From Bacteroidota bacterium (lineage in GTDB: Bacteria; Bacteroidota; Bacteroidia; Bacteroidales; Lentimicrobiaceae), in contig WSXU01000005.1 of NCBI GenBank assembly GCA_009773455.1, positions 62,001-126,000 of the forward strand: a stretch of 64,000 bases of DNA. Reading direction: 5' to 3'. The position numbers and the translations under genes were made by a program. Positions 36,910-59,324 of this stretch are shown here, piece after piece. The first letter of the stretch is position 1, and each line of letters starts with the position of its first letter. The notes beneath the pieces are model-generated. The model saw only the letters and a list, made by a program, of their open reading frames with translations, made no database searches and was not told the origin of the DNA.

Positions 36910-39303
36910 TCAGGCCGAAACAGCCAAACCTTTCCTTTTGGCCAGTACTGTAACTGAAAGGCTTGCGAAGGCGACCACCGAAATTGAACTCAAAGGCATC
37001 AGCACAGCTGCAAAAACAGGTGATAGTAATCCCTGAACCGCAAATGAAAGTCCGACAATGTTATACATAAACGATATGCCGTAACTCATATAAACAATGT
37101 TTACCGACTTCCTGGCAAAGCCAACAAAATGATTCAGACGGCCGAATTCAGAGGACTTCAGAATAGCGTCGCAGGCCGGAGAGAAATGATAGATGTCATC
37201 GGCAATGGTGATTCCGATATCGGCTTTGATCAAAGCACCGGCATCGTTCAGCCCGTCGCCGATCATAATAACCTTCCGGCCACTGTTGGTCAGGTCATTG
37301 ATGAAATTGAGTTTATCTAAGGGCGATTGGTTAAAGTATAATGCATCGTCTGCACCGAATACCTTCACCAGATTGCTTCTTTCGGAATCGTTATCTCCTG
37401 AAATCATATACTTCTGATAACCATCGAACCCGGCAATCACCTCTTCAAGACCTTCACGGTAGGAATTTTCAAGCTTGAAGTATCCCTTCAGTTTGTGGTC
37501 GATGGAAATGTATACCGAAGAAACCCGGCTATCTTCAGGTGATTCACTGCCGGCTATAAACTTTCGTGAACCCAGCATGATGCTGTGACCTTCGAGCAAA
37601 CCCGAAATACCCATACCCGGGATTTCACGATAACCTTCAACAGTCATGTCGGCGACAGCCGGCAACCAATCGCTCACAATGACAGACAACGGATGGGTTG
37701 AATTTCTGGCAACGGATCGGATCCACTGCATCTCGCTAACGCTAAGCGGTTCACCTTCCCAGCTCACATTCATCGACCGGGAATGGGTAAGGGTGCCGGT
37801 TTTATCAAAAACCACGGTATCGGTTTTCACCAGATTTTCGATCACCCCTGTATTCTTGATATAAAACCCGTTACGCCCGAAAATCCGCATCAGATTTCCG
37901 AAAGTAAAAGGGATGGTCAGCGAGAGGGCACAGGGACAGGCAACAATAAGAATGGAAGCAAAAACATATACTGCTTTACCTATATCCTCAAATGCCCAGA
38001 AAATGAATGCCAAAGTAGCTATTGCCAGGATAACCAGCGTGAAGTAGTGGCTGACCCTGTTCACAATTGTCTGCATATTCATGCCTGTTTCTTCACCAAG
38101 GCGATCCTCATTCCAGAGCTGGGTAAGATAACTCTGTGCCACCTCTTTTACTACCTGCAGTTTGATGGCTGCGCCGGTCTGCTTTCCTCCGGCATAAACA
38201 AAATCTCCTGTTTTTTTTGACACCGGAATCGATTCGCCGGTCACAAAACTGTAGTCAATACTACCTTCTCCTTCCATCATCACTGAATCTACAGGAATCA
38301 GTTCTCCATTCCTGACAAGGATCAGATCACCCTGACGGACATCCTGCAACTGCACAAATTCCTCATTCCCATCACGTAACAAGGTCACCGCAATCGGGAA
38401 ATAAGACCTGTAATCCCTGTCAAATGACAGAGACTGGTAAGTACGGCTCTGGTACCAGCGTCCGATCAGCATAAAGAAGAGCAGACCTGCCAGTGAATCC
38501 ATATAACCGGTTCCGGAACCGCTGAAAATTTCATAACTGCTTTCCAGGAACAGAGCCAGAATACCAATGGAAAGTGGAAGATCGATGTTAATGACTTTCT
38601 TCCGCAGGCTTTTCCATGCGGAAAGGAAAAAGTCGCTGCTGCAATAGGTTATTACAGGAAGAGCTAAAATAAAGGATACAATTCCAAATGTGCCGGCCAT
38701 CAGTCGGTCAATGGCTTCCCCTCCCGGAAGATAATCAGGAAAACTCACCAGCATAATGTTTCCGAAAGCAAAACCTGCCACCCCTATCTTCATGATCATC
38801 CGGCGGTTGGCCTTCTGGTGACTGTCTTTTTTGGAGCTGTCGTAACTGATGTCCGGAATGTAATGAATGGAATGAAGTAACTCAATCAACTGCCTGAGGC
38901 TGATCTCCCCGTCATGAAAAGTGATGCTTACCTCCTTACGAACGAAATTGACATGCGAGTGCATGATACCGGGGTGCAATGTATTCAGGTTTTCGAGCAA
39001 CCAGATACAACTGCTGCAGTGAATGGCAGGAATAAATAGCTTGACCCGGGAAATTCCGCCATCGGAAAACTCAAGTAACCGGTTACTTATCTCCTGATTG
39101 TCAAGATAAGCATATCTGGTTCCGGCAGCATTTTCAGTTTCCAGGCGAATGCCGGGTGAAGGCATCATCTCATAATACCGGTTCAGCTTTTTTTCGGAGA
39201 GTATCTGGTAAACCATGCTGCATCCGTTGCAGCAAAATGGTTTCTGATCAAAAACAACAGGGTTTTTACCACATTCCTGTCCACAGTGCACACATTCAGC
39301 CAT
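36910..39303 (-). CDS. ccoI: copper-translocating P-type ATPase CcoI (FixI)
   Basis: About 797 residues from ATG 39303; the open frame begins 21 bp earlier with a non-ATG codon. The N-terminal Cys-rich domain has CVHCGQEC and CCNGC (24-28), then a metal-binding domain with CSSC (96-99). Membrane helices, the actuator TGES (355-358), the transport-site CPC (456-458), the phosphorylation site DKTGT (500-504) and STHPLS of the ATP-binding domain all appear. This is the CcoI/FixI type that exports copper to the periplasm for cbb3 assembly. It stands ahead of ccoS in the same direction with a 200-bp gap. Confidence 0.95.
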   Translation of the reverse strand: MAECVHCGQECGKNPVVFDQKPFCCNGCSMVYQILSEKKLNRYYEMMPSPGIRLETENAAGTRYAYLDNQEISNRLLEFSDGGISRVKLFIPAIHCSSCIWLLENLNTLHPGIMHSHVNFVRKEVSITFHDGEISLRQLIELLHSIHYIPDISYDSSKKDSHQKANRRMIMKIGVAGFAFGNIMLVSFPDYLPGGEAIDRLMAGTFGIVSFILALPVITYCSSDFFLSAWKSLRKKVINIDLPLSIGILALFLESSYEIFSGSGTGYMDSLAGLLFFMLIGRWYQSRTYQSLSFDRDYRSYFPIAVTLLRDGNEEFVQLQDVRQGDLILVRNGELIPVDSVMMEGEGSIDYSFVTGESIPVSKKTGDFVYAGGKQTGAAIKLQVVKEVAQSYLTQLWNEDRLGEETGMNMQTIVNRVSHYFTLVILAIATLAFIFWAFEDIGKAVYVFASILIVACPCALSLTIPFTFGNLMRIFGRNGFYIKNTGVIENLVKTDTVVFDKTGTLTHSRSMNVSWEGEPLSVSEMQWIRSVARNSTHPLSVIVSDWLPAVADMTVEGYREIPGMGISGLLEGHSIMLGSRKFIAGSESPEDSRVSSVYISIDHKLKGYFKLENSYREGLEEVIAGFDGYQKYMISGDNDSERSNLVKVFGADDALYFNQSPLDKLNFINDLTNSGRKVIMIGDGLNDAGALIKADIGITIADDIYHFSPACDAILKSSEFGRLNHFVGFARKSVNIVYMSYGISFMYNIVGLSFAVQGLLSPVFAAVLMPLSSISVVAFASLSVTVLAKRKGLAVSA

Positions 39304-39321
39304 AAGTAATAATTGCGATGG

Positions 39322-39329
39322 CAAAAATA
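39322..39329 (-). promoter_or_regulatory. -7 promoter box ahead of ccoI
   Basis: TATTTTTG on the minus strand matches TAnnTTTG exactly and lies 18 nt ahead of the ATG. Confidence 0.5.
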
Positions 39330-39477
39330 ACTTTTATTTCCTACAAGCTTTAGGAATGGTCTCCGGGTATATTAAACAAAAGTAACCAATCAGAAAAACT
39401 ACGCTTCCAACTGACAGATCATCATTTTTGGGGATGGGTGACTTTTATTGAACACATATATCAATACTGGCAGAAGC

Positions 39478-40434
39478 TTATTTTGCTTTCCTGATGCTGA
39501 AATCCCTCGACAAACTGATGGCATATGAGTACTGCGGAGTCAGTTGCTTACCCTTGTAATTCTTATACACAGGGACATCATACAACAGGGAAACATTCCA
39601 CAACCCGGCCACGACATAGGAGATTTGTGGCGTAAATACCATCAGGTGATATCCGGTATTGACTTCATTTTCTCCATCCTGCACATCTCTGCCATGAATC
39701 TCGTTGCGAAGCTGAACAATGCCAAAAAACCGCCTGGCGATTTTTTTCGAAACAAACACCGAGGTGGTAAGCAACTTACCCGTCTGATAATCGTTGACAT
39801 TGAATCCGTTATACTCAAAACGGTTAAGAATGAACGTCCGCAGGGTGAGTTGGGTAAACTCCTTACTCAGCAGCAATGACCCGGTGACTCCAAATGCATT
39901 GGTCGACGGACGCGCATCCAGTTGCAACAACGTGCCATTTTCCGCAGTAGCCGGCTGGCGTGAAAAAGGAAACTTGAACCCCACCCCTGCCGTTATCTCA
40001 ACTTCACGCACAGGATCGACATAGAGCCCGTATTTCAGCATAAAAGTGCCGTTTGCCATACCCCGTCCGTTGTGGTCGGTGAGGGCAGGATTATGAAAGT
40101 TAACCACTTTATTGATGAAATAACCGGCATCGGCCTGAAGGGTAATGCGGTGAGTCAGCCCGTATTCAAGGGTGATCCCCGTGAAATCATAATGGGCATT
40201 GTCCGACATATCCGTTTCATCATCCGAAGGTTTACTTCCCTTGTAATAAATATCGGAAAAACTATGCCGGTAGAAAGTGATTGCCCTGGCCGTTTTTTTA
40301 TTTACCAGGCCGACATGGGTAGAGGCCCCGACCGGGCTTCCGGTTGAACAACACTGGGCCATGCCGTCTTTTGCAATGCAAATCAGGGCTGAAAGCAGGA
40401 CACCGAAAAGCAGCTTATTCCACATAATTGACAT
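39478..40434 (-). CDS. outer-membrane transporter-like barrel with N-terminal CCSxGxP motif
   Basis: About 318 residues. A signal peptide (WNKLLFGVLLSALICIAKDGMAQ) is followed directly by QCCSTGSPVG, a vicinal Cys pair at the mature N-terminus. The remaining part is beta-rich, ends in alternating strands (QYSYAISLSRDFSIRKAK), and fits an outer-membrane barrel. I recall similar CCSxGxP-start proteins next to TonB receptors in Bacteroidota; the Cys pair suggests metal contact. ATG 40434 is chosen; 40440 and 40425 are alternatives. All overlap the end of the preceding lipoprotein gene, so the two are likely coupled. Confidence 0.65.
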   Translation of the reverse strand: MSIMWNKLLFGVLLSALICIAKDGMAQCCSTGSPVGASTHVGLVNKKTARAITFYRHSFSDIYYKGSKPSDDETDMSDNAHYDFTGITLEYGLTHRITLQADAGYFINKVVNFHNPALTDHNGRGMANGTFMLKYGLYVDPVREVEITAGVGFKFPFSRQPATAENGTLLQLDARPSTNAFGVTGSLLLSKEFTQLTLRTFILNRFEYNGFNVNDYQTGKLLTTSVFVSKKIARRFFGIVQLRNEIHGRDVQDGENEVNTGYHLMVFTPQISYVVAGLWNVSLLYDVPVYKNYKGKQLTPQYSYAISLSRDFSIRKAK

Positions 40435-40774
40435 ATGCATCTTTTGACGCCTGGTGGTTGGCATTGTCCTTCACTTCACAGGTAATTTTGAACTTACCGC
40501 CATGGCAGATGGTAAACATAACCTCAGGGCCGGAACCCTCAAAAATACCCAGTTCATTGTCGCATTTCCATGTATAGGTGAGGTTCTCGCCATTAACATC
40601 AGCTACAACCTTAGTCAGTTCCATGATTGCCAGAGTGTCATGCTCAACCGTCAGGCTCACAAACTCAATACTTCCTGTTTCTGCAGGCAAATCCTTTTTT
40701 TCACAACCTCCTGAAATGAATAACAACAAAAGGGAAACAGGTAATATGAGGACAGAAAAAAGTCTTTTCTTCAT
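40415..40774 (-). CDS. small lipoprotein with PKD/Ig-like domain
   Basis: A 119-residue protein with a lipobox (LLLLFISGGC) and one Ig/PKD-like domain: VVADVNGENLTYTWKCDN, then GKFKITCEVKDNANHQASKD. Two Cys (in WKC and TIC) could form a disulfide and a third is in ITC. It is 39 bp after the T9SS gene and overlaps the barrel gene. Function unknown; by position it belongs to the TonB receptor cluster. Confidence 0.7.
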   Translation of the reverse strand: MKKRLFSVLILPVSLLLLFISGGCEKKDLPAETGSIEFVSLTVEHDTLAIMELTKVVADVNGENLTYTWKCDNELGIFEGSGPEVMFTICHGGKFKITCEVKDNANHQASKDAYVNYVE

Positions 40775-40813
40775 TGGATTTAGTTTTAATTTGTTAACAT
40801 TCAGTTAAATAAA

Positions 40814-41710
40814 TTATTGACCAATGACAAATTTCCTTGTCAGAACTCCTTGCGGTGTGGATAGCTGAACAAAATAAACGCCCGGAGCCGGATTGAATTC
40901 TGCCAGATCCTCACTGAGTAAATTCGGCCCCACGACAATCTCCTTTTCAGATTGGTAAAGGATATTCCCAACAATGTCTGATATAGAAAGTTGTGCTGAA
41001 TAATCCTGTTTACTCACAAATTTTACGAACAAACGTTCGGATACAGGTGAAGGATAAACACTGAGTTCACCCTTTGCTGCCATCACATCTGTAACACCGG
41101 TGGCCATACCATCGAAACCCAGATCATCGAGCCAGATAAAGCTGTTCTTTTTGGGTGTATGACCACTGGAAGAAATAAAGACTATGGCAGTATCAGGGAC
41201 ATCCACACTCTGGTACATAAAAGGGATGGAGAAACCGGTCCACACATGAATCATCCCCGTTGTGGTTTTCCAGAGACTGGCAATGGTATCACGACGGTGA
41301 TTAACAGTATTCCATTTTGTAAGCCAGGCTGCAATGGTGGCCACATCATCGTTGTATCCCATAAACTGGTATTTACCAACCAGGCTTTCGACACGCTGGT
41401 TAAAAGGGAATCCCGATTCAGCCTGCCATGTTTCAGTATTCAACTGTCCGCTAACGATCATTCCGGGTGTAATCACACCGCCAACATCTTTGGTTGTGAG
41501 CTTAATGTAATAATCACCGGTGGCTCCGGGACTTCCCTTGATGGTGGTAAAAACACCCGATGCAGAGGTGGCTGCATTCATATTTCCCCACTGATCCGGA
41601 ATTTCATAGGATCCGGCAGAGGTCCAGCTTTCAAACCCTGAATTGGGAATCTGTGCCTGAAGGAGGCTTGTTATGGCTGCAAAAAGAACAATGAAACCAA
41701 TCTTTTTCAT
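40814..41710 (-). CDS. secreted protein with T9SS C-terminal sorting domain
   Basis: A 298-residue protein with a signal peptide (GFIVLFAAITSLLQAQ). The N-terminal part is a jelly-roll-like domain (IPNSGFESWTSAGSYEIPDQW, then FIWLDDLGFDG) similar in layout to the PCMD-type carbohydrate domains of Bacteroidota. The last 75 residues form a type A sorting domain: ELSVYPSPVSERLFVKF, then AELSISDIVGN-like strands and APGVYFVQLSTPQGVLTRKFVI. It should be exported through T9SS and held at the cell surface. It lies in the TonB receptor cluster. Confidence 0.8.
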   Translation of the reverse strand: MKKIGFIVLFAAITSLLQAQIPNSGFESWTSAGSYEIPDQWGNMNAATSASGVFTTIKGSPGATGDYYIKLTTKDVGGVITPGMIVSGQLNTETWQAESGFPFNQRVESLVGKYQFMGYNDDVATIAAWLTKWNTVNHRRDTIASLWKTTTGMIHVWTGFSIPFMYQSVDVPDTAIVFISSSGHTPKKNSFIWLDDLGFDGMATGVTDVMAAKGELSVYPSPVSERLFVKFVSKQDYSAQLSISDIVGNILYQSEKEIVVGPNLLSEDLAEFNPAPGVYFVQLSTPQGVLTRKFVIGQ

Positions 41711-41733
41711 ATGTAGAATCTGACATTGATTAA

Positions 41734-41741
41734 CAAAAATA
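41734..41741 (-). promoter_or_regulatory. -7 promoter box ahead of the T9SS gene
   Basis: TATTTTTG on the minus strand matches TAnnTTTG exactly, 23 nt ahead of the ATG at 41710. It indicates that the last three genes of the cluster can be transcribed on their own. Confidence 0.5.
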
Positions 41742-41767
41742 GTTTATTTCAGGCTAAAAATCACGAA

Positions 41768-44071
41768 TCACTTTATAGAATACCTGAACCCGGCATAAAC
41801 CGTTGCTCCGACTAGCGGCCCCCAGACCATTGAGGTATCAAAATGTGTATGGTATGGCGCAAACGCTTCTGTTACAGGATCTTTCTGAGTGAAATTTGTC
41901 AGGTTTTCTCCTCCGAGATACACCTCGAAATGCTTGAATTTCCGGGTAACCTGAGCCATCAACTGCACATAGGCAGGTGAATATGAGCCGCGTTGCAGAA
42001 ATGAAGGCATCTTTCGCGTATCAGGGATTCGTGCCCTGCCGATAAACTGTGAAGTCAGGTCGAATTTCCACTTTTCGAAACGGGTAGCATAATTGAGGGA
42101 AACGATTCCCTTGTAGGCATTGACCATGGGTTTCTGCCTGAGTTCACCATTGATCGTCGTCTTCACATCACTTACCCTGAAGGCAGTCAGTACTGAAAGT
42201 CGCTCAACAGGTTCAAAAGTGAACTGTAACATATAGCTGTTGGCAAATGACCTGCCATCAAGGTTGTAGAAAAATACATCCGAAGGAATACTGTCAAGAT
42301 CAGCGATGACCTGACTTATAAAATCAGTGCGGTAGGCTTCAGCATCAATCTGGGCATCACGGCCGAATAATTTGAAATCATGGGTCAGACTGATACCGAA
42401 ATTCCAGGCTTCCTCCTGCTTGAGATCCGTGGCAAGATGAATTACACGCTGGCTGGCCATGATGGAGAAATTCTCAGCAAACAGATTTGCAGACCGATAA
42501 CCCTTTCCGGCCGACGCCCTTAACATTGTACCATGGTGAATTTCGTACTTCAGATGGAACCTGGGCGTAAAAAAAAGTCCATATTTGTTGTGATGGTCAG
42601 CGCGGATACCACCAATCAGGGTAAGATGCTCCAAGGGAGTCCAGTTATACTCAAGATAAGCCCCGGGCACCATTTCGTTCCGGTCCATAACATAGGTGGT
42701 ATCGGTAAAATGATGAACTGTCAGCAGGGTATCGTTGGGCAGGGAAACATCCATAACACCCAGTTCCTGGTAAAGAAACGTAAAATCACGCCTGAAATAA
42801 TCCTCATTATAGTCATCGTAAATAAAACTGAACCCTGTTGTTATGCGGTGTTTCTCATTTCCGGCAATGGCATCCTGGTACTTATTGTTACCGAAAAACC
42901 CCTCCTGTGAATGATAAATTCCTGAAACAATTATTGCCACACTCCTGTAATTATTCAGGATAATCCCGTTCTTCCAGAAACTCTCGAGCCGCTTAGTTTT
43001 CAACTTAAAACCATAGGTTTCAGTCAGGTTGCTGATTTTTTCAACATCAGGGTTGTAGGTATCAGGATCAAAATCCATGTATCCGCCTTCACGCGATTCG
43101 TCGAGATACTTTATCAGAAACCTGGAATCGTATTTCCCCGGGACATCGTAATCCCACCGGTTGATAAAATTGAACGTAGTCAGCTTTGGGATATCCATAA
43201 ACTGGTCGTCGTTTTTATCAAAAGAGTTGCGAAAAGTACTGGCATGACCCATGACCATGGTACTCAGGCGATCGTTCAGCCTGGTTCCCGAATTGAAATT
43301 GGCTTCAAGCCGGCCATGCTGGTTTGCAAACACATTCAGAAACAGTTTCTCACTTTCGGCGGGTTTCTTATACTCAACATTGATCAGCCCGGTGGTGGAT
43401 TCATAACCATTCATAACAGACGAAGCACCTTTGGAAACACTGATAGACTGCATCCAGGGCCCCGGAATATACCCAAGTCCAAAGGTAGATCCCAGGCCTC
43501 GGAGCAGGGGTACATTTTCAGAAATAATCTGGCTGTAGATTCCTGATAAACCAAGCATCTGTATCTGCTTGGCCCCTGAAATCGCATCGGCATACATTAC
43601 ATCAACAGAAGAATTGGTTTCAAAACTCTCTGAAAGATTGCAGCAGGCTGCCCTGGTGAGTTCATTGCTGGTGATTACCTGCACCTTTCTAGGATCGAGT
43701 TGTGAAATAAAGGAAGTGCCGATCCTGTCTTTTATCTCGACTTCACTGAGTTCACTGGATGTTTCCGTGAGGATGATTTCCAGCTTTTTCTTACCATCTA
43801 CTTGAACGGTATCGGTCTTATAACCCAATGAACTTACTACCAGCAAATAGTCGGAAATGCCTTTCTGCGACAGGCTGAATTTCCCCGAAGCATCGGTACT
43901 TGTGCCTGTTGTTGTTCCTGCCCAGTGAATATTGGCACCAGGCAAACCGATGGATTTGCCATTTGCATCCGTCACATAAACTTTTCCGGATATGGTTTGG
44001 GCCAGGCTATTCTCAGCCATAAGGATACCCAGCAGGCAGCAGAAAATCAGTGTGATATTTTTTATGTACAT
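41768..44071 (-). CDS. TonB-dependent outer-membrane receptor (possible metal receptor)
   Basis: About 767 residues from ATG 44071. A signal peptide (TLIFCCLLGILMAENSLAQ) is followed by a carboxypeptidase-like regulatory domain (TISGKVYVTDANGKSIGLPG), a plug and a 22-strand barrel ending YAGFRYSIK. The plug has the vicinal Cys pair in TRAACCNLSESFETN. This receptor type with an ACCNLSESFE plug is, as I recall, found near heavy-metal and copper genes. It stands after an HYC_CC_PP gene and ahead of ccoI. Copper or another thiophilic metal, free or chelated, is the favoured ligand, but this is inference. Confidence 0.9.
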   Translation of the reverse strand: MYIKNITLIFCCLLGILMAENSLAQTISGKVYVTDANGKSIGLPGANIHWAGTTTGTSTDASGKFSLSQKGISDYLLVVSSLGYKTDTVQVDGKKKLEIILTETSSELSEVEIKDRIGTSFISQLDPRKVQVITSNELTRAACCNLSESFETNSSVDVMYADAISGAKQIQMLGLSGIYSQIISENVPLLRGLGSTFGLGYIPGPWMQSISVSKGASSVMNGYESTTGLINVEYKKPAESEKLFLNVFANQHGRLEANFNSGTRLNDRLSTMVMGHASTFRNSFDKNDDQFMDIPKLTTFNFINRWDYDVPGKYDSRFLIKYLDESREGGYMDFDPDTYNPDVEKISNLTETYGFKLKTKRLESFWKNGIILNNYRSVAIIVSGIYHSQEGFFGNNKYQDAIAGNEKHRITTGFSFIYDDYNEDYFRRDFTFLYQELGVMDVSLPNDTLLTVHHFTDTTYVMDRNEMVPGAYLEYNWTPLEHLTLIGGIRADHHNKYGLFFTPRFHLKYEIHHGTMLRASAGKGYRSANLFAENFSIMASQRVIHLATDLKQEEAWNFGISLTHDFKLFGRDAQIDAEAYRTDFISQVIADLDSIPSDVFFYNLDGRSFANSYMLQFTFEPVERLSVLTAFRVSDVKTTINGELRQKPMVNAYKGIVSLNYATRFEKWKFDLTSQFIGRARIPDTRKMPSFLQRGSYSPAYVQLMAQVTRKFKHFEVYLGGENLTNFTQKDPVTEAFAPYHTHFDTSMVWGPLVGATVYAGFRYSIK

Positions 44072-44184
44072 GGTTTTGATTTTACAGTTTTTTTTTACAG
44101 AGGACAATGATTAACCGGATTGCATTCAGACAGCGAAGGCTGATTGAATGACAAGCGGAACAGGAAAGAGATCAGCTCTTTCTG

Positions 44185-44670
44185 TTAACTGTAAATACTG
44201 TAGGGAATCCGCTGCTGGGAAAGGAAAAGCACCAGTTCACGACCCGCTTTGGGTGGCGGCCTGAACCTGAAATCAAAAACATGAATATTATCCTTTTCAC
44301 AAACAGGCTGAACAGCATTGTTTATGTCTGCTATAACCATAGCGGGCTGAAGCAGTGTTACCGGAAAGGAAAAAGTAACCGGATATTCGAGACTGAGCCT
44401 GGAGAAAAATGAAATGTTTGAACAGCAACTCTTTTTTTGCAGAGCAGGCTTACTTTCTGATAGAGGATGTTTTGTAACTGGTAAATCACATTTACAACCA
44501 CAGGAAGCTGGCTTCTGCAAACCAAGTTCTGTATAAAAAGCAATGCCTGACAGGTTACCGTTGCAATAATGCGCCTTATACGACAAGCCGGTAGTGCCTG
44601 CAAATACAATCATTGAAAGAACAATGAGTATTACACTGCCTGCAAAATCACGTAAGCGCTTTCTGCTCAT
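44185..44670 (-). CDS. HYC_CC_PP family protein
   Basis: About 161 residues from ATG 44670. The open frame extends to a TTG at 44712, but a -7 box covers that position, so 44670 is preferred. One N-terminal membrane helix (VILIVLSMIVFAGTTGLSY) is followed by the three family hallmarks: HYC (in AHYCNG), CC (in KKSCCSN) and PPP (in RFRPPPKAG). It also has CGCKC. HYC_CC_PP proteins are small Bacteroidota proteins of unknown function found beside TonB receptors and heavy-metal genes. The ten or so Cys suggest a metal-binding role. Confidence 0.85.
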   Translation of the reverse strand: MSRKRLRDFAGSVILIVLSMIVFAGTTGLSYKAHYCNGNLSGIAFYTELGLQKPASCGCKCDLPVTKHPLSESKPALQKKSCCSNISFFSRLSLEYPVTFSFPVTLLQPAMVIADINNAVQPVCEKDNIHVFDFRFRPPPKAGRELVLFLSQQRIPYSIYS

Positions 44671-44709
44671 CTGAATCTGACCAATTTTCAGGTTAATCTT
44701 TTTCCCCTG

Positions 44710-44717
44710 CAAAAGTA
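44710..44717 (-). promoter_or_regulatory. -7 box of the TonB receptor cluster promoter
   Basis: TACTTTTG on the minus strand matches TAnnTTTG exactly, 40 nt ahead of ATG 44670. The start site it implies (near 44703) lies downstream of the TTG at 44712, which rules that codon out. Confidence 0.6.
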
Positions 44718-46003: not shown

Positions 46004-47023
46004 CTACATATCTGATAGTTGCATAAATTTTACTTCATTCAGACACCTGATTGAGCGGTCAGAGAAAAAATCGGCTGCCGGGTATAAAAGGAAGGCACCC
46101 TGCTTCTTTACCCCGCTCATAGGGACAATCAGCACTTCAGCCTGGTCGTTCCGGTTGAATATTTCGCTGTAAGTAAATACCGCACGGTATCCATCAGGTG
46201 CCGAGACTACAAATAACCCGGTTTTCAGATTTTCTCCGGACATCTTATAGATATCCGCAGAAAAATCTTTCAGCATTACTCCCCTGAAAGGTGTAGTTCC
46301 GTGAATTCCGGTTCCACGGCCGTAAAAAACCGAACCATAAGAAACCTGATTTCCTTCCAGCCCGCCATCTGAAATGCTTTTCCTGAGCTGGTCACGGTCG
46401 GAGAATTTAAGTTCACCGGCATACATATCCGGGATATTCCTGTCTACTTTATAATTCAGTGTTGATGACCGGATGGTAATTTTCACCGGGCTGCTGATGT
46501 TACGTTCAGTATAAAGATCTGAAGCCACCACCAGCTTTGAAACAGCCGGAAGCGGCCATAGTTCTTTGGTCTTGGAAGGAACGATACGACGGACTTTTGA
46601 GGCAATGATAATCTCATGCCGATGGATGGGGTAGTAGAGTTCCCCCCAACTGATAACTGCTTTCTCTCCTGCTGCATTCTCTATCACAACAAAGAGATCG
46701 ATGATCGGGGCAAACTCAGCTTCATTCTTCTTCTTCAGAACAACACGATCAAGGATATCGTAAAGTGAATAACCTTCGTATTGATATGATCCGACAAAAG
46801 TGCCGTTTTTGCCATCGAATAATGTTTCTTTCACTACAATCTGACGCAGGGGCAGTGCTGAAAAATCAACCGTCCCCGGATTCCCGATTTCGCCCTCGAG
46901 GGTTAATGCCGACATTACCAGATCTGCTTGCGGAGCATCATCATAAAAATCATTGGTTTGGGCATTAACTGCCTGATAAAAAAGAAGCGATAAAGCCGTG
47001 AGGCAAAAAACAGTTTTCTTCAT
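46004..47023 (-). CDS. secreted tandem molybdopterin-oxidoreductase-like fold, no catalytic cysteine
   Basis: A 339-residue protein with a signal peptide (TVFCLTALSLLFYQAVNAQ). It has two similar halves. The first (about 38-185) has LTLEGEIGNPGTVDFSALPL, YEGYSLYDILD and LFVVIENAAGEKAVISWGEL. The second (about 230-325) has TTPFRGVMLKDF and LFVVSAPDGYRAVFTYSEIF. Both resemble the sulfite-oxidase-type molybdopterin domain (PF00174). Only two Cys exist, one in the signal peptide and one near the C-terminus, so neither half has a Cys to bind molybdenum. It is therefore more likely a ligand-binding protein than a Mo enzyme. It lies 12 bp after the TonB receptor, in one operon with it. Confidence 0.7.
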   Translation of the reverse strand: MKKTVFCLTALSLLFYQAVNAQTNDFYDDAPQADLVMSALTLEGEIGNPGTVDFSALPLRQIVVKETLFDGKNGTFVGSYQYEGYSLYDILDRVVLKKKNEAEFAPIIDLFVVIENAAGEKAVISWGELYYPIHRHEIIIASKVRRIVPSKTKELWPLPAVSKLVVASDLYTERNISSPVKITIRSSTLNYKVDRNIPDMYAGELKFSDRDQLRKSISDGGLEGNQVSYGSVFYGRGTGIHGTTPFRGVMLKDFSADIYKMSGENLKTGLFVVSAPDGYRAVFTYSEIFNRNDQAEVLIVPMSGVKKQGAFLLYPAADFFSDRSIRCLNEVKFMQLSDM

Positions 47024-47035
47024 TTGGGATTCTGG

Positions 47036-49393
47036 TTAAAGATGATAGGCAATCTCAGCAGAAATGAATCTGCCGGGGCAAACAGCATACTTGCTGTCAT
47101 AATATTTTACGTTCAGTAAGTTCTGAATGCTGAAAGAGGCTTTAAAATGTCTAAGAAAAGATTTTGAAAGCTTGAGGTCTACCGTTGTGTAACCGGGATA
47201 CCTGTCCGAAAGCAGGATTTCATCAACCGTATTCTGATCATTGATATACATTGGACCGGAATAACGTACAAACAGCCCTGTGTTTAAAATCCTGTTACTC
47301 CAGGTGGCACCACAGCTGAAGATATGGGCCGGTACATCGGTCAGGTAGTTTCCCGACAGATCAATGGTATCATTGTTGGAAATCTTGCTGTAATTCAGGA
47401 TCACTGAATGTGAATAGGCATAATTGGCAAAAATGCTCAGGTCAGTCAGAATGTCGTAACGCACTTCTGACTCAGCTCCATAGATCTCAACTTCACTGAT
47501 GTTAGCCCTGATAAAGATTGGACGATCTCCGAAACCCATATCGATGGTTTGGCCATTGCTGACATAATACTGAAAATCTCTGCCTCTGGAATAGAACAGT
47601 GAGGCGGAGAAAAATGCATTCTCAACCGGCTTGAGATCAAACCCTGTCTCATAATTACTCAGGTACTCGGGTTTAAGGGCAGGGTTGGCTATTTTGAATC
47701 CTCCTTTGATCCTGCCTGAGCGACATAGATCATCCAATACCGAAGCACGGAATCCACGCGAAAACATGGCATAAACCCGGTTGTTCTTATTCCACTTGTA
47801 TTGAGCTGAAAGCCTGGGGCTGAATGCATTCCGGTTCTGTACCGGCATCTCCGGAGCCTGATACCCCGACATAAATGCCGTTTCCATTGTCGGATCCTGA
47901 ATGCGGAACGATCCGTCATAGAAAGTTGCCATATCGTATCTTAACCCGGCTATGATCCTGAGCCTGTCGCCGATCAGGCTGATCTCATCCTGGGCAAACA
48001 AAGCCCAGGTGTTCATTTTACCTTCATTGTAGACTATATCGGTTGACGTGTAATACTTATCGTAGGCATCAACACTGCCGTTTTTAAAATCAAAGCCCCC
48101 GGTGAGCTGCTGTGATTTGCCGGCCTGCCTGCTGAAGGTAGTCATCCAGCCGTAATCGCGGCGGGTTGATAGCACCTCGTACCAGGTATAATCATCCTTA
48201 AGGTATTCGTTCACCTTTTTATAATCCTCATTCAATATGTATAAAGATGAAACGGCATTGACCGTTCCGATTTTACCCCTGTAATTCAGGGTCACTCCCC
48301 ATGAATCGTGATCGGTGGTATTCCCTTCCGGCTGATAAACCTTCTCGCCGGTTCCGCGACGGTCATTGTAATAGTTTACGGAGGCCTCTATTGTATGCTT
48401 ACTGCCCAGGTTTAAACCGGTCTTCAGGTTTGCGCCGGTCTCACGCATATCTGATTTTATGATGTATGGATTGGCTTTTACATCGGCTTCGCTTTGGGTG
48501 ATGTAACCATCGCTGATTTTAAAAAAGGAATTCAGCATCCAGAAGAAGCTGTTTTTGCTGTTTTCCAGGTTTTTAACTCCTCCGGCATTCATCCTCGCCC
48601 CACGGGTATGAAATGAGCCCACTTCCAGCGAAGCCCTGAGAAACAGAGGAGTTTCGGGTTTGCCTGAAATAATGTTGATAATTCCACCCATGGCATTCCC
48701 GCCATACAAGGCCGACCCTGCCCCCTTGATGATTTCAATTTTTCTGACAGAATTCACATCCACCAGGTTCCAGTCGACGGTACCTCCGTCAGACTTGTTC
48801 AACGGCACTCCGTCGAGCAGAACAAGGACCCTGCCCTGCTCCTTACCACTTAAACCCCTCATCATCACATTCGCCTTGGTACTGAAGATACCGAAAGGCC
48901 GGTTGTAATTGATTCCCGGGGCGTATTTCAGCGCTTCGTCAATGTTCTGAACCGGAATATTACCTAACTGCCGGGGAGAAATCAGGTTGACCCTGACAGG
49001 GGTATTCAGCATGCTGTTGTCGGTCCTGGTGGCAGTCACAACCACCTCATCAACCAAAACCGGAAGAGGAAGCAGTGAGATCTCGGGAAGGTTGTTATCG
49101 CCCGGTAAAAGCCTTAAACTTATTGTCCGGGGCTCATACCCCAGGTAGCTGACCACGATTCTGACTGAGTCTGACTTCAGTCCGCACAGCCTGAAACTGC
49201 CATGCTTATCGGTAATCGTCCCCTTCCCTGCTGCAAGGCTTATGTTGGCTTCACCGACCGGCCTACCGGATTGTTTTGCCGTTACCTTTCCGCTGAGGCA
49301 GGATTGGCTTTTCACAGAAAGAGAAGCCAGAAAAAATATCAAAAACAGGGCAATCAATCCCGGGAGCCGGGTTTTGCCGGGTAATTTTCTCAT
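47036..49393 (-). CDS. TonB-dependent outer-membrane receptor
   Basis: A 785-residue receptor with a signal peptide (LIALFLIFFLASLSVKSQ), a carboxypeptidase-like domain (CLSGKVTAKQSGRPVGEANI, about 31-110), a plug with a TonB-box-like LVDEVVVTATR and GGNAMGGIINIISG, and a barrel ending in an aromatic-His (AEIAYHL). Its start overlaps the stop of the lipoprotein gene before it by 4 bp. It has the look of siderophore/cobalamin-type receptors rather than SusC. The ligand is unknown; the neighbouring lipoproteins and molybdopterin-like fold presumably belong to the same uptake system. Confidence 0.92.
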   Translation of the reverse strand: MRKLPGKTRLPGLIALFLIFFLASLSVKSQSCLSGKVTAKQSGRPVGEANISLAAGKGTITDKHGSFRLCGLKSDSVRIVVSYLGYEPRTISLRLLPGDNNLPEISLLPLPVLVDEVVVTATRTDNSMLNTPVRVNLISPRQLGNIPVQNIDEALKYAPGINYNRPFGIFSTKANVMMRGLSGKEQGRVLVLLDGVPLNKSDGGTVDWNLVDVNSVRKIEIIKGAGSALYGGNAMGGIINIISGKPETPLFLRASLEVGSFHTRGARMNAGGVKNLENSKNSFFWMLNSFFKISDGYITQSEADVKANPYIIKSDMRETGANLKTGLNLGSKHTIEASVNYYNDRRGTGEKVYQPEGNTTDHDSWGVTLNYRGKIGTVNAVSSLYILNEDYKKVNEYLKDDYTWYEVLSTRRDYGWMTTFSRQAGKSQQLTGGFDFKNGSVDAYDKYYTSTDIVYNEGKMNTWALFAQDEISLIGDRLRIIAGLRYDMATFYDGSFRIQDPTMETAFMSGYQAPEMPVQNRNAFSPRLSAQYKWNKNNRVYAMFSRGFRASVLDDLCRSGRIKGGFKIANPALKPEYLSNYETGFDLKPVENAFFSASLFYSRGRDFQYYVSNGQTIDMGFGDRPIFIRANISEVEIYGAESEVRYDILTDLSIFANYAYSHSVILNYSKISNNDTIDLSGNYLTDVPAHIFSCGATWSNRILNTGLFVRYSGPMYINDQNTVDEILLSDRYPGYTTVDLKLSKSFLRHFKASFSIQNLLNVKYYDSKYAVCPGRFISAEIAYHL

Positions 49394-50331
49394 TGTTGTA
49401 TCTTAACAGCAATTTCAATGGTGCCGTTTCCGGCTTCATCGGCCCTGATCACTTTGATCAGACCATATTTTCCTTCCATCGTTTTAAAAGGCACGATTTT
49501 ACCTGTGTAACAGTACTTACAGTTTCCACTCACCTTTTCGGGCTTATAGGCTGTAATCAGCAGACTATCGTTCATCGCAGCATCAAAACTCTCTGTACTG
49601 ACAAGGTTGTTGTCTGTTGACAGATAATCGTAAAGGGTATTGTTTTTTGTACCCCATCCTGCCAGTTGGGGATAATAACCTACTGCAGCTGTATAACCGG
49701 GGCAGGTCAGCGACGGCGAAGGCAATCCGGATGTCACATAATAATAACCGAGAATATCTATTGTGCCTTCTTTGCCGGCCACCGTTGATTCATCATAAAC
49801 CAGTCCTTGATCCACATCCACAAAATGTCCCTGACTGTGATTGTCCTGAAAACCGAAAACAACTGACGGGAAGTAGCTGATGGGACCGTATGCACTGCCC
49901 GAACCTTTGCTTATCCTGAGCGAACTGATGGCTGTAACGCGGTCGGCATTCATCACCATAACATTCCAGATCTCAACAGCGGAGGTATCCTTGGCAAAAA
50001 TATAGTCAGCATCCAGTCCTTCGCTGTTGGCATATAGTCCCCTGTCTAACTGAGTAACCGTATCGTTTCCGGTGATCCGATCAATTCTTATATAGGTCAA
50101 AGGGGCTCCGGCTCCAGAAGCAAGCACCCCGATACGGATGGTTCCTCCAACCGGAATAGCTGCATTATCAGGCGTATATGTCTGTCCGGTTTTGAGAATC
50201 AGTGAAGTTTTATGAATGCCTTCATCCTTTGAGCAGGCGCTCAGCAGTAAAAGGGCTGAAAACAGAAAAAGCCACACCACCGGAATGAGGTGGAGTGGCT
50301 TTCCCTTTACCATACCGATGTATGAAATCAT
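49390..50331 (-). CDS. lipoprotein, paralog of the next upstream gene
   Basis: A 313-residue lipoprotein (LLLLSACSKDEG lipobox; ATG 50313 is an alternative start that shortens the leader). It begins with an Ig-like part (AIPVGGTIRIGVLASG) and ends with a domain closing GKYGLIKVIRADEAGNGTIEI. It matches the neighbouring lipoprotein in order of motifs: GFQDNHSQG with GAQDNVTVQ, FDAAMNDSLL with FDAVQNDAIV, and the end motif. A CKYC pair near residue 270 is unique to this copy. No family was recognised. It is coupled to the TonB receptor by a 4-bp overlap. Confidence 0.7.
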   Translation of the reverse strand: MISYIGMVKGKPLHLIPVVWLFLFSALLLLSACSKDEGIHKTSLILKTGQTYTPDNAAIPVGGTIRIGVLASGAGAPLTYIRIDRITGNDTVTQLDRGLYANSEGLDADYIFAKDTSAVEIWNVMVMNADRVTAISSLRISKGSGSAYGPISYFPSVVFGFQDNHSQGHFVDVDQGLVYDESTVAGKEGTIDILGYYYVTSGLPSPSLTCPGYTAAVGYYPQLAGWGTKNNTLYDYLSTDNNLVSTESFDAAMNDSLLITAYKPEKVSGNCKYCYTGKIVPFKTMEGKYGLIKVIRADEAGNGTIEIAVKIQQ

Positions 50332-50334
50332 GGG

Positions 50335-51216
50335 TTATTTCTGAACTTTTATGGCGATTTCAAGGGTGCCTGTTTCTGCACCGGTCACTTCAATAACCTT
50401 AAGTAGACCATATTTACCATTCTGGAGTTTAAAGCAATACACATCACCTGCGGTCAACACCTTGGCTTTTCTGAAATCGGCGTCGGTATCATACGAATCC
50501 AGCACGATGGCATCGTTCTGAACTGCGTCAAACTGGGCAGCTGTCAGGGATGTTTTTACAAACCAGGTCAGGTTTTTTGTCGTGTAATTCTCAGGGGAGG
50601 TTGCTCCGGTAAATACGCCTGTAATGCCGGTTCCGGGTGAAGCAAGCGACATCATGTTCTGAGAGGTTGCTGTGTTTTCATAGAAACAGAACATGTCGAT
50701 TTTTTCCTGATTGTTGAAGGCTTCAGCCTGAAAGTATCTTGTGGCACTGTGGTTGTCGAGCGAAAGGAAGCTCTGTACCGTTACATTATCCTGGGCACCC
50801 ATCAGCACGGTTACATAGGAATCAAGTTCACCGAAAGCACCGGTAATGGTAATGGTTTCTTCCTTTTTGTTACCTGCGATATCGGTAGCGGTAAATTTCC
50901 ATACATCCTCTGCATTGGTGCCTTTGATCGAATAGAAGTCAAACGTAAAGCTTGATGTATTGATGGTAGAGTCGAGTAAGGTTTCATCATTGGCTTTGAT
51001 TTCAAACTTCACGATGTTGTCGGAACCATTCCCCTGGAGGATAATGCCAAACCTTAAGGTGTCACCGTATGCTGCGGTTGTATTACCGGTTACATAACCA
51101 TCAATCTGATTGAATGCAACCGTTGGAAGTGAAGGCTCTTCCTCGTCTTTTGAACAACTGGTAAACATCAGTCCTGTAAACAGGATCATTCCTGATAAAA
51201 ATAAAATCTTTTTCAT
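50335..51216 (-). CDS. lipoprotein, first gene of the second TonB receptor cluster
   Basis: A 293-residue lipoprotein (GLMFTSCSKDEEEP lipobox). The N-terminal Ig-like part (AYGDTLRFGIILQGNGSDNIVKFEIKA, read in two motifs) is followed by ENTATSQNMMSLASPGTG and a C-terminal part ending GKYGLLKVIEVTGAETGTLEI. It is a tandem paralog of the next gene, from which it is separated by 3 bp. Probably surface- or periplasm-facing partner of the receptor. A complete promoter precedes it. Confidence 0.7.
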   Translation of the reverse strand: MKKILFLSGMILFTGLMFTSCSKDEEEPSLPTVAFNQIDGYVTGNTTAAYGDTLRFGIILQGNGSDNIVKFEIKANDETLLDSTINTSSFTFDFYSIKGTNAEDVWKFTATDIAGNKKEETITITGAFGELDSYVTVLMGAQDNVTVQSFLSLDNHSATRYFQAEAFNNQEKIDMFCFYENTATSQNMMSLASPGTGITGVFTGATSPENYTTKNLTWFVKTSLTAAQFDAVQNDAIVLDSYDTDADFRKAKVLTAGDVYCFKLQNGKYGLLKVIEVTGAETGTLEIAIKVQK

Positions 51217-56818: not shown

Positions 56819-57163
56819 ATGAAAAAAGTACTTTTTCTTGCAATTTCATTGACAATCCTGGCTGCCTGTAACAGCACTGTGTCAGATAAAACCGGCGAAT
56901 CTAAAAAAGAGGTAAATGTAGCTGCCGTAAAAACCATCGAACTCCGTGTTACCGGAATGACCTGTGAAGGATGTGAAAATACGGTTAAAGAAGCTGTAAA
57001 CAATGTCAAAGGGGTTACCTCATCTGAAGCTTCCTTTACTGCAGAAATTGCAAAAATCAGCTATGACACCACACTGACCAATCAGGAGAAACTTTCATCG
57101 GTTATCAACGATCTGGGCTACAAGGTTGAAGGTCTGGCGGTTAATGCTGTGCCGGAAAAATAG
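56819..57163 (+). CDS. lipoprotein with heavy-metal-associated (HMA) domain
   Basis: A 114-residue protein with a lipobox (LTILAAC, Cys17), a short linker and one HMA domain (about 38-106). The metal site GMTCEGC has Cys49 and Cys52. HMA domains bind Cu(I) or other soft metals. The combination of a lipoprotein signal with one HMA domain suggests a periplasmic copper chaperone or sensor. It lies 92 bp after acs and is followed by a strong terminator. Confidence 0.88.
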   Translation: MKKVLFLAISLTILAACNSTVSDKTGESKKEVNVAAVKTIELRVTGMTCEGCENTVKEAVNNVKGVTSSEASFTAEIAKISYDTTLTNQEKLSSVINDLGYKVEGLAVNAVPEK

Positions 57164-57764: not shown

Positions 57765-59324
57765 ATGTATGAAAATTTTGATTATTCACTGATCGATTGG
57801 TCGAGAGCGCAGTTTGCCCTCACAGCCATGTATCACTGGATATTCGTCCCATTGACCCTGGGCCTGGGGTTTATACTGGCCATCATGGAATCCATCTATG
57901 TTAGAACAGGTGATCCGGAGTGGAAAAGGATTACCAAATTCTGGATGACGATATTCGGGATCAACTTCGCCATTGGGGTTGCTACCGGCATCATCCTTGA
58001 ATTCGAATTCGGCACCAACTGGTCGAACTATTCCTGGTTTGTAGGTGATATTTTCGGAGCACCCCTGGCCATTGAAGGCATTATGGCTTTCTTTCTGGAG
58101 TCTACATTCATCGCGGTGATGTTTTTTGGCTGGAACAAAGTCAGCAAGAACTTCCACCTGTTATCTACCTGGCTGGTTGCTTTCGGAGCCAGCCTTTCTG
58201 CGCTGTGGATCCTTGTTGCAAATGCCTGGATGCAGATGCCGGTAGGCATGAAATTTAACCCGGATACAGCCCGCAACGAAATGAATAACTTCTGGGAGGT
58301 ACTGCTCTCGCCGATGGCCGTCAGTAAGTTCACTCATACCATTGCCTCCTCCTATCTGCTGGCAGCTATTGTGGTAATCGGAATCAGTTCCTGGTTCCTT
58401 CTGAAGAAACGGCACCTGGTTTTTGCCAAACGCAGCATGGTGGTTGCCGCGGTTTTCGGTATCGTAACTTCCTTGTTTACTATATTAACCGGTGATTACA
58501 GTGCCAAAGTTATTGCCAAACACCAGCCCATGAAGTTCGCTGCTTTCGAGGGACTTTCAGTAGGTATGCGGGGTGCACCGCTGGTAGCCCTTGGCATTGT
58601 TTCTTCATCACCCGATGATCCGAATAATGAGAATGTCAAGGATTTTGCCTTTAAAATTGAGATCCCGAATTTCCTCTCATACATGGCTTTTCAGGATTTC
58701 AACGCCTTTATTCCCGGGGTAAAGGACCTGATGGAAGGCAACGAAGAGCATGGAATTATGTCAGCTGCCGAAAAAATTGTCAGGGGAAGGCTGGCAATCA
58801 ATGCCCTTGCCGATTACAAAGCCGCCCGTAAGGCCGGCGATGAGGTCAAACAGGCAGAAGCACAGCAAGTTCTTGACGAAAACTTCAGATATTTCGGATA
58901 CGGCTACTTTGAGAACAATCCGCAGGGCCTTCTGCCAAACCTGCCACTGACCTTCTACAGTTTTCACATTATGGTAATGCTTGGCTTCTGGTTCCTTGTT
59001 TTTTTTGCACTGATACTCCTTCTGGTATATAAAAACAGGATATCTACTTCCCGATTCTGGCTGAGAATTGCGATTCTGAATATCCCCCTGGCCTATATAG
59101 CTTCACAGTCAGGCTGGATAACTGCTGAGATGGGCCGGCAACCCTGGGTTATCCAGGATCTGATGCCAACCATGGCTGCTGTATCGAAACTCGACAGCGG
59201 CGCAGTGGTTGTCACCTTTGTACTTTTCGCCCTGATCTTCACTTCACTGCTGATCGCGGAATTAAAAATTATGTTCAGGCAAATCAAGAACGGACCAAAA
59301 CCAGGAGGAAATGACCATGTTTGA
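57765..59324 (+). CDS. cydA: cytochrome bd quinol oxidase subunit I
   Basis: A 519-residue CydA with about nine membrane helices. The opening SRAQFALTAMYHWIFVPLTLG has the heme ligand His24. SKFTHTIASSYL holds a second His ligand. The quinol-binding Q-loop region (residues 255-340) is present, and the C-terminal EMGRQPWVIQ motif is intact. It oxidises quinol and reduces O2 with high affinity, without proton pumping. It starts 6 bp after DUF4492 and overlaps cydB by 14 bp. Confidence 0.96.
   Translation: MYENFDYSLIDWSRAQFALTAMYHWIFVPLTLGLGFILAIMESIYVRTGDPEWKRITKFWMTIFGINFAIGVATGIILEFEFGTNWSNYSWFVGDIFGAPLAIEGIMAFFLESTFIAVMFFGWNKVSKNFHLLSTWLVAFGASLSALWILVANAWMQMPVGMKFNPDTARNEMNNFWEVLLSPMAVSKFTHTIASSYLLAAIVVIGISSWFLLKKRHLVFAKRSMVVAAVFGIVTSLFTILTGDYSAKVIAKHQPMKFAAFEGLSVGMRGAPLVALGIVSSSPDDPNNENVKDFAFKIEIPNFLSYMAFQDFNAFIPGVKDLMEGNEEHGIMSAAEKIVRGRLAINALADYKAARKAGDEVKQAEAQQVLDENFRYFGYGYFENNPQGLLPNLPLTFYSFHIMVMLGFWFLVFFALILLLVYKNRISTSRFWLRIAILNIPLAYIASQSGWITAEMGRQPWVIQDLMPTMAAVSKLDSGAVVVTFVLFALIFTSLLIAELKIMFRQIKNGPKPGGNDHV

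What the first reader, a model, noticed from the sequence alone, without database searches (positions are those of the whole stretch)
39478..44717. TonB receptor cluster with Cys-pair proteins next to the cbb3 copper genes
HYC_CC_PP protein, a TonB receptor with ACCNLSESFE in its plug, a T9SS protein, a lipoprotein and a barrel opening QCCSTGSP all read toward the copper ATPase gene ccoI. Vicinal Cys in four or so of the products and the link to ccoI suggest outer-membrane uptake of copper (or another soft metal) for the oxidases. A dedicated outer-membrane copper import route for cbb3 assembly is, to my knowledge, not established in Bacteroidota.
Basis: partly seen in the sequence, partly recalled or inferred. 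Interest (0 to 1): 0.65.

Follow-up and report, generated by a model that had tools for sequence, protein, structure and literature searches.

The report
Bacteroidota outer-membrane copper receptor module
This is a real gene cluster built on a widespread Bacteroidota outer-membrane uptake module, most likely for copper, whose receptor is in some species fused to a copper-chaperone-like domain; its place beside the cbb3 oxidase genes looks peculiar to this genome.

Summary
The genes are there, but they split in two. (1) HYC_CC_PP protein plus a TonB receptor with an invariant Cys-Cys in its plug is a conserved Bacteroidota pair. Its usual third member, absent beside this receptor, is an exported HMA-domain (copper-chaperone-like) protein: near the receptor in 87 and fused to its N-terminus in 17 of 151 receptors. 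The window's genome carries such an HMA gene on another contig. Some copies sit beside CopA-type Cu ATPases, an HMBD protein or multicopper oxidases. (2) The PKD-lipoprotein/barrel genes are a separate, usually unlinked pair; the barrel's 'QCC' is not conserved (9 of 20). The ccoI link looks local: 1 of 32 genomes with both places listed has receptor and ccoNO on one contig, 0 of 12 anchored ccoI regions show the receptor family, and 76 of 147 receptor genomes have no COX1 match. So the copper/soft-metal half of the reading is supported, the cbb3-dedicated half is not. Copper TonB receptors serving oxidases are known in Proteobacteria (CrtA, TccA). New here: an apparently unstudied Bacteroidota family with a receptor-fused chaperone domain. 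Import is inferred, not shown.

The parts
44185..44712 (-). HYC_CC_PP family protein (likely starts at ATG 44670); N-terminal membrane helix or signal, Cys-rich
   Evidence: NF047658 31.3 bits, cut-off 28; HYC-type gene at -3..-1 of the receptor in 101 of 107 unique loci; C50, C97 invariant in 48 aligned; AlphaFold2 model poor, pLDDT 69.4
44710..44717 (-). promoter-like box TACTTTTG upstream of HYC
   Evidence: TANNTTTG match; the consensus is recalled, function not tested
41768..44107 (-). TonB-dependent receptor, CarbopepD_reg_2 + plug + barrel (likely starts at ATG 44071)
   Evidence: Pfam; AlphaFold2 model pLDDT 77.9, pTM 0.72; ordinary TonB-receptor fold
43640..43645 (-). codons of the vicinal Cys pair C155-C156 in the plug (ACCNLSESFE)
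   Evidence: invariant in 26/26; motif in 60/61 and 20/20
41734..41741 (-). promoter-like box TATTTTTG between receptor and T9SS gene
   Evidence: sequence
40814..41710 (-). T9SS-sorted secreted protein (PCMD similarity below cut-off), no Cys
   Evidence: Por_Secre_tail, TIGR04183; homologue near the barrel in 2 of 20 barrel loci, L206 and L209
40415..40774 (-). PKD-domain lipoprotein, partner of the barrel
   Evidence: PF00801; homologue immediately upstream of the barrel in 17 of 24 barrel loci
39478..40464 (-). predicted outer-membrane barrel opening QCCSTGSP; separate accessory, usually unlinked to the receptor
   Evidence: no Pfam/NCBIfam match; homologues in 57 of 247 genomes; listed within 3.4 kb of a receptor in 5 of 46 genomes with both listed
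39322..39329 (-). promoter-like box TATTTTTG 19 bases upstream of the likely ccoI ATG (39303); a second, TACTTTTG, at 39377-39384
   Evidence: sequence
36910..39324 (-). ccoI (FixI-type Cu ATPase); neighbour, not part of the module
   Evidence: PF12156, PF00122, PF00702; 12 anchored ccoI regions of other genomes lack the receptor family

Best explanation
HYC_CC_PP + TonB receptor (+ exported HMA protein, in the window's genome encoded elsewhere) is a general copper-acquisition module of Bacteroidota. The receptor takes copper, as ion or small chelate, across the outer membrane with TonB energy. The Cys-Cys at the start of the plug and the Cys-rich HYC protein pass it to a periplasmic HMA domain (CxxC), which is sometimes built into the receptor's own N-terminus. 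From that pool copper serves whatever the cell has, including oxidases where present; it is not dedicated to cbb3. The T9SS/PKD/barrel genes are an accessory found beside the receptor in a few lineages. Shown: gene association, fusion, conserved Cys, distribution. Inferred: that the metal is copper, that the direction is inward, and the hand-off order.
For: HMA fused to the receptor N-terminus in 17 of 151 receptors, needing at least 4 changes on a FastTree tree, 3 forced by starred branches; confirmed by Pfam in single open frames (HMA 31.1 and 27.6 bits over the 24.8 cut-off in L149 and L113) and present on contigs of 2.6-4.8 Mb (L251, L253, L254, L256, L257). HMA gene near (within 3 ORFs, same strand) in 87 of 151, 64 of them-type hits at position +1 and at most 7 at any other position in the earlier count. 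HYC at -3..-1 in 101 of 107 unique loci. The window's genome holds a module-type HMA protein at contig C34, 138.3 bits against a module median of 120.1. P1B ATPases with CPCALGLATP lie within 5 ORFs of the receptor in 6 loci; the three of them scanned pass the curated cut-off of TIGR01511, copper-translocating (594.7, 615.1, 603.3 against 397). Also multicopper oxidase domains in L098 and L147 and an HMBD protein in L125, and a YHS metal domain in place of HMA in L262. The HMA profile's best solved relatives are mostly copper ATPase domains and CopZ.
Against: No expression, binding or metal data. Copper-export genes as neighbours fit tolerance as well as uptake. MerP and Zn-ATPase domains also match the HMA profile, and one of that profile's 12 rows is the off-module window lipoprotein. 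47 of 151 receptors have no HMA nearby, the window's own among them. 76 of 147 receptor-bearing genomes lack a COX1 match, so the need for copper there is unexplained (draft incompleteness was not corrected for). OprC's CxxxM motif is absent at the Cys pair. The six ATPase loci come from only about three lineages. The HMA/HYC models were trained on part of the loci in which they were counted.
Confidence: 0.58

Rival explanations
1. The module is about copper, but for tolerance, sequestration or sensing at the outer membrane and periplasm rather than nutrition: receptor and HMA capture or report copper in concert with CopA and CueO-like oxidases.
For: Neighbours in some loci are export/detox genes: CopA-type ATPase in 6 loci, CueO-like oxidase in L098, HMBD protein in L125, small proteins with an N-terminal CxxC segment and, in the one scanned, an AraC-type domain. 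Module present in genomes without COX1 matches, e.g. Bacteroides ihuae (L146; COX1 did not ring in that species' control genome).
Against: A TonB receptor fused to a periplasmic chaperone domain points inward (inference from what is known of TonB receptors).
Confidence: 0.2
2. The module takes up another soft metal (zinc, or a thiolate/metal chelate) with the same chain of Cys ligands.
For: HMA domains can bind Zn, Cd and Hg (general knowledge); MerP and a zinc ATPase domain are among the HMA profile's matches.
Against: The three linked ATPases that were scanned score as copper type over the curated cut-off; multicopper oxidases occur beside it in two loci.
Confidence: 0.13
3. One reading: an outer-membrane copper import route dedicated to cbb3 assembly.
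For: In this genome the receptor lies in a region holding caa3, cbb3 and bd oxidase genes. Weak co-occurrence of receptor and ccoNO, 36 of 49 against 111 of 198, Fisher p = 0.034, not corrected for relatedness.
Against: Same contig in 1 of 32 genomes with both places listed; no receptor-family gene or HYC near ccoI in 12 anchored neighbourhoods, 8 more fetched could not be anchored; genus mates G124 and G222 carry HYC-receptor-HMA in other places, G222 with its ccoNO on another contig and G124 with no ccoNO match; 111 of 147 receptor genomes have no ccoNO match.
Confidence: 0.05
4. The T9SS protein, PKD lipoprotein and barrel form one functional machine with the receptor.
For: A barrel homologue is listed within 3.4 kb of a receptor in 5 of 46 genomes with both listed, about 0.15 expected on a crude estimate; the nearest relative of the window's receptor, L033, has PKD lipoprotein and barrel behind the receptor too.
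Against: In the other 41 genomes no listed barrel lies near a listed receptor; the second-nearest relative L034 lacks the pair; 20 barrel loci fetched from elsewhere carry no HYC or HMA within 6 kb (chosen among barrels away from the receptor, so this only shows that the pair stands alone there).
Confidence: 0.15

Closest known systems
CrtA of Bordetella pertussis and Pseudomonas aeruginosa (PMC12914433; abstract, outline and passages seen)
   Same: TonB-dependent copper importer; some of its operons are reported with ScoI and PCuAC genes; linked to respiratory oxidases
   Different: Reported mostly in beta- and gamma-Proteobacteria, with an essential invariant His; no HMA domain is mentioned in what I saw. 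Here the receptor is in Bacteroidota, CarboxypepD-type, with plug Cys-Cys, and common in genomes without COX1 match
TccA of Caulobacter vibrioides (PMC12617631; abstract, outline and passages seen)
   Same: TonB receptor needed for copper supply to an oxidase
   Different: Reported as specific for aa3 oxidase, predicted His-His site; no HMA/HYC partners mentioned in what I saw
OprC, and the OprC-like receptor BZARG_1494 proposed in Bizionia argentinensis (PMC11213822 section 12 part 1)
   Same: Copper TonB receptor; the Bizionia gene is listed three locus numbers from CcoG, with a P-type ATPase and NosL nearby in the list
   Different: OprC motif CxxxM-HxM; here no Met four residues after either plug Cys in 26 of 26
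HYC_CC_PP family NF047658 and 'heavy-metal-associated domain-containing protein' of NCBI annotation
   Same: These are the module's partners, already named as families
   Different: The annotation seen gives no function and no grouping with the receptor
XusA of Bacteroides thetaiotaomicron (9gbc; name)
   Same: Best solved relative of the receptor profile, 71 bits over residues 18-239
   Different: Siderophore transporter by its entry title; no Cys pair at the aligned place

Membership tests
TonB-dependent receptor | plug and TonB-receptor barrel domains | tested here: met
   PF07715 and PF00593 over cut-off; ordinary TonB-receptor fold, best Z 34.6 to Cir
HYC_CC_PP (NF047658) | score over the curated cut-off of 28 bits | tested here: met
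   31.3 bits
HYC-receptor-HMA module (defined here) | HYC upstream, receptor with plug Cys-Cys | tested here: met
HYC-receptor-HMA module (defined here) | HMA protein near or fused | tested here: not met
   absent beside the window receptor, but a module-type HMA protein is encoded on contig C34 of the same genome; 46 other receptors of 151 also have none nearby
OprC-type copper receptor | CxxxM ... HxM copper site | tested here: not met
   positions +4 from C155 and C156 are S/A/G and E in alignment A1; the HxM half was not examined
OprC-type copper receptor | sequence or fold relationship closer than to other TonB receptors | tested here: inconclusive
   OprC ranks 29 and lower in Foldseek, level with many receptors; not among the 50 rows; no OprC among the sequence matches
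CrtA family | invariant His, ScoI/PCuAC genes in the operon | not tested
   CrtA sequences were not compared and PCuAC genes were not searched for
cbb3-dedicated copper uptake | conserved linkage to cco genes and absence without cbb3 | tested here: not met
   1 of 32 on one contig; 111 of 147 receptor genomes without ccoNO match; 0 of 12 anchored ccoI regions
TonB-dependent copper importer (function) | copper binding and import | not testable with these tools
   needs metal measurements

The most novel reading that the evidence does not exclude
A phylum-wide class of TonB receptors hands its metal directly from a Cys-Cys in the plug to an HMA metallochaperone domain, as a separate periplasmic protein or fused to the receptor itself: a 'receptor with its own chaperone'. 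Its presence in anaerobic Bacteroidota without heme-copper oxidases would mean an unrecognised copper requirement or copper-scavenging strategy there.
Probability: 0.42. Interest if true: 0.76.

Novelty: new variant of a known kind. Interest (0 to 1): 0.55.

Why it matters
Copper entry across the outer membrane is poorly known, and the shown receptors that I found are proteobacterial. This family matches in 147 of 247 genomes of the window's order and scores high in 77 of 296 genomes of a phylum sample, and occurs in Bacteroides and Phocaeicola records. The natural HMA fusion gives a one-protein system for testing how a TonB receptor passes a toxic metal to a chaperone, and its presence in genomes without COX1 matches makes the question 'what do anaerobic Bacteroidota want copper for?' testable.

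Tried and rejected
cbb3-dedicated uptake: rejected as a general rule. Barrel 'QCC' as a metal motif: rejected (9 of 20). PKD lipoprotein and T9SS protein as metal proteins: no vicinal Cys. OprC type: CxxxM absent. The HMA lipoprotein at 56819-57163 as the missing partner: set aside, because it scores 64.1 bits with the module model against 138.3 for the C34 protein and lacks the terminal Cys-Cys. A TonB receptor directly upstream of ccoI in L189 (G196) looked like a parallel case; it is only 26% like ours, and I see no vicinal Cys in its printed sequence. The ATPase upstream of HYC in L279 shows no CPC motif in the part held. Structure of HYC: too poor to use, not searched. Fold search of the receptor: uninformative on ligand. 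sigma-70/terminator scan: fewer sites than in shuffles. Pfam, NCBIfam and PDB searches for the barrel: nothing of use. Literature searches for the HYC name and for receptor + HMA or copper found nothing on this module among what was listed; only the held open-access library was searched, and most listed papers were seen as listings only. Iron-stimulon and zinc papers (PMC10434189, PMC11960050; passages only) named no member that I could recognise.

Counting cautions: loci were selected partly on CCNL[SA]ESF, so Cys-pair counts use other loci. The 1e-80 phylum count (111 of 296) includes weaker rows of a sister group: L266, L267, L269 and L270, fetched from it, showed no HYC or HMA tag (the Cys motif was printed as missing for L266 and L267 before the script stopped, and was not printed for the other two; L268 could not be anchored), so only the 77 genomes at 538 bits or more are used. 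Five duplicate loci were dropped. The 20 ccoI regions are 20 of 49 ccoNO genomes, picked for score and contig length; 8 had no recognisable ccoI in the stretch. The 20 barrel loci were picked among high-scoring barrels not already seen beside a receptor. The 60 loci are 60 of 147 receptor genomes (the 40 and 20 more). The third genus mate, G005, was not fetched. Absence of COX1 or ccoNO was not corrected for genome incompleteness, and no association test except the fusion count used a tree.
Full report
Observation. Pfam and NCBIfam identify the TonB receptor, the T9SS signal, a PKD domain in the lipoprotein and HYC_CC_PP; the barrel has no family. Downstream lie ccoI, ccoNO, ccoP, ccoG, ccoH, a DsbD-like gene and a cytochrome c. 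Vicinal cysteines are in three mature products, not four.

The conserved unit is different from the one described. The receptor was searched in 247 genomes of the order (147 with a match at 1e-40) and neighbourhoods were fetched. What recurs is HYC_CC_PP, then receptor, then a small exported protein with an HMA domain. Among 107 unique loci with genes on both sides, an HYC-type gene is within three genes upstream in 101, a small HMA gene within three genes downstream in 62, both in 60; 6 have no HYC within five genes upstream and 38 no small HMA within five genes. In the earlier clustering of 120 loci, HMA-type ORFs number 64 at position +1 and at most 7 at any other. In a count of 60 loci with known COX1 status, HYC is near in 54 and HMA near or fused in 44. 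As controls, 20 barrel loci away from the receptor and 12 anchored ccoI loci carry no HYC and no small HMA gene nearby. The models were built on part of the module loci, so Pfam was used as an independent check on examples.

Fusion. In 17 of 151 receptors the HMA domain, with its signal peptide and CxxC, is the N-terminus of the receptor itself, before the carboxypeptidase-like and plug domains. Named cases include Ferruginibacter, Segetibacter, Pinibacter and Phaeodactylibacter records. Pfam finds HMA, CarbopepD_reg_2, Plug and barrel in one frame in L149 and L113, all over the cut-offs; in L251 and L252 HMA is matched but below its cut-off (23.9 and 19.6 against 24.8). On a FastTree tree the trait needs at least four changes, three forced by starred branches. 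This is the strongest evidence that receptor and HMA act together in the periplasm.

The window's case. The receptor here has no HMA neighbour, but the same genome encodes a module-type HMA protein on contig C34 (123 aa, 138.3 bits, CxxC and terminal Cys-Cys). Genus mates G124 and G222 have HYC-receptor-HMA together and in other places; the third, G005, was not fetched. In the window the place behind the receptor is taken by the T9SS gene and the PKD lipoprotein/barrel pair. That pair is a module of its own: a PKD homologue directly precedes the barrel in 17 of 24 barrel loci, and barrel homologues occur in 57 of 247 genomes. They are listed within 3.4 kb of a receptor in 5 of 46 genomes that have both listed, where about 0.15 is expected on a crude estimate, so the association is real but occasional; the window's nearest relative L033 has it and the next, L034, has not.

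Metal. Copper is the best guess. P1B ATPases with CPCALGLATP lie within five genes in 6 loci (two Bacteroides, three Dyadobacter, one Sphingobacteriales record, so about three lineages); the three scanned with NCBIfam pass the curated cut-off for copper-translocating ATPases. Multicopper oxidase domains (L098, L147) and an HMBD protein (L125) occur beside it; small proteins with an N-terminal CxxC segment recur, and the one scanned has an AraC-type DNA-binding domain; a YHS metal domain stands in for HMA in L262. The HMA profile's best solved relatives are copper ATPase domains and CopZ, with MerP and zinc ATPase domains further down (one of its 12 rows is the off-module window lipoprotein). 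These neighbours are largely export genes, so uptake is inferred from the receptor type, not shown.

Not cbb3-specific. ccoNO matches 49 of 247 genomes; 36 of these have the receptor, but 111 receptor genomes have no ccoNO match (Fisher p = 0.034 without correction for relatedness). Of 32 genomes with both places listed (of 36 with both), only the window's has them on one contig. Of ccoI regions fetched from 20 genomes, 12 could be anchored and none shows the receptor family or HYC. COX1 of any kind matches 112 of 247; 76 of 147 receptor genomes have no match (p = 0.30). HMA is kept in 30 of 40 COX1-bearing and 14 of 20 COX1-free receptor loci (p = 0.76). Bacteroides ihuae has HYC-receptor-HMA-CopA (L146), while COX1 did not ring in the control genome of that species. 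In this genome the receptor does sit in a region with alternative complex III, SCO1, caa3, cbb3 and bd genes, so local use by oxidases remains possible.

Known systems. TonB-dependent copper receptors serving oxidases are reported in Proteobacteria: CrtA (PMC12914433) and TccA (PMC12617631); I saw abstracts, outlines and passages. In Bacteroidota an OprC-like receptor was proposed in Bizionia (PMC11213822, section 12 part 1). The present family lacks OprC's CxxxM at the plug cysteines and is not specially close to OprC in fold. No paper on this HYC-receptor-HMA module turned up in the searches of the held library.

Verdict. The thing worth following is the Bacteroidota HYC/TonB-receptor/HMA module with its natural receptor-chaperone fusion.

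Noticed in passing
window 56819-57163 (+): Exported HMA-domain lipoprotein upstream of cytochrome bd genes (57765-60474); less like the module HMA proteins (64.1 bits).
   Followed up: partly
window 15536-39324 and 57765-60474: One region holds alternative complex III, SCO1, caa3, cbb3 and bd oxidase genes.
   Followed up: partly
window 39478-40774: PKD lipoprotein + barrel is a recurrent two-gene pair in the order, with mature barrel starting QC[CFL]; function unknown.
   Followed up: partly
window 46004-51216 (-): A second TonB receptor (nearest NCBIfam model heme type, below cut-off) with a secreted protein and two probable lipoproteins.
   Followed up: no
L262:10717-11061: YHS/TRASH-type metal domain protein takes the place of HMA behind the receptor.
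   Followed up: partly
L266, L267, L269, L270: Sister receptors matched by the profile in the weaker rows, without HYC or HMA tags nearby; Cys motif missing in the two for which it was printed.
   Followed up: partly
L153 (NZ_OY725762.1): A Parabacteroides 'plasmid' record carries the module beside smpB, metH and ftsK, so it may be chromosomal sequence.
   Followed up: no
L098, L124, L125, L127, L133: Small proteins with an N-terminal CxxC segment like HMA (AraC-type domain in the one scanned, L133) sit within two genes of the receptor.
   Followed up: partly
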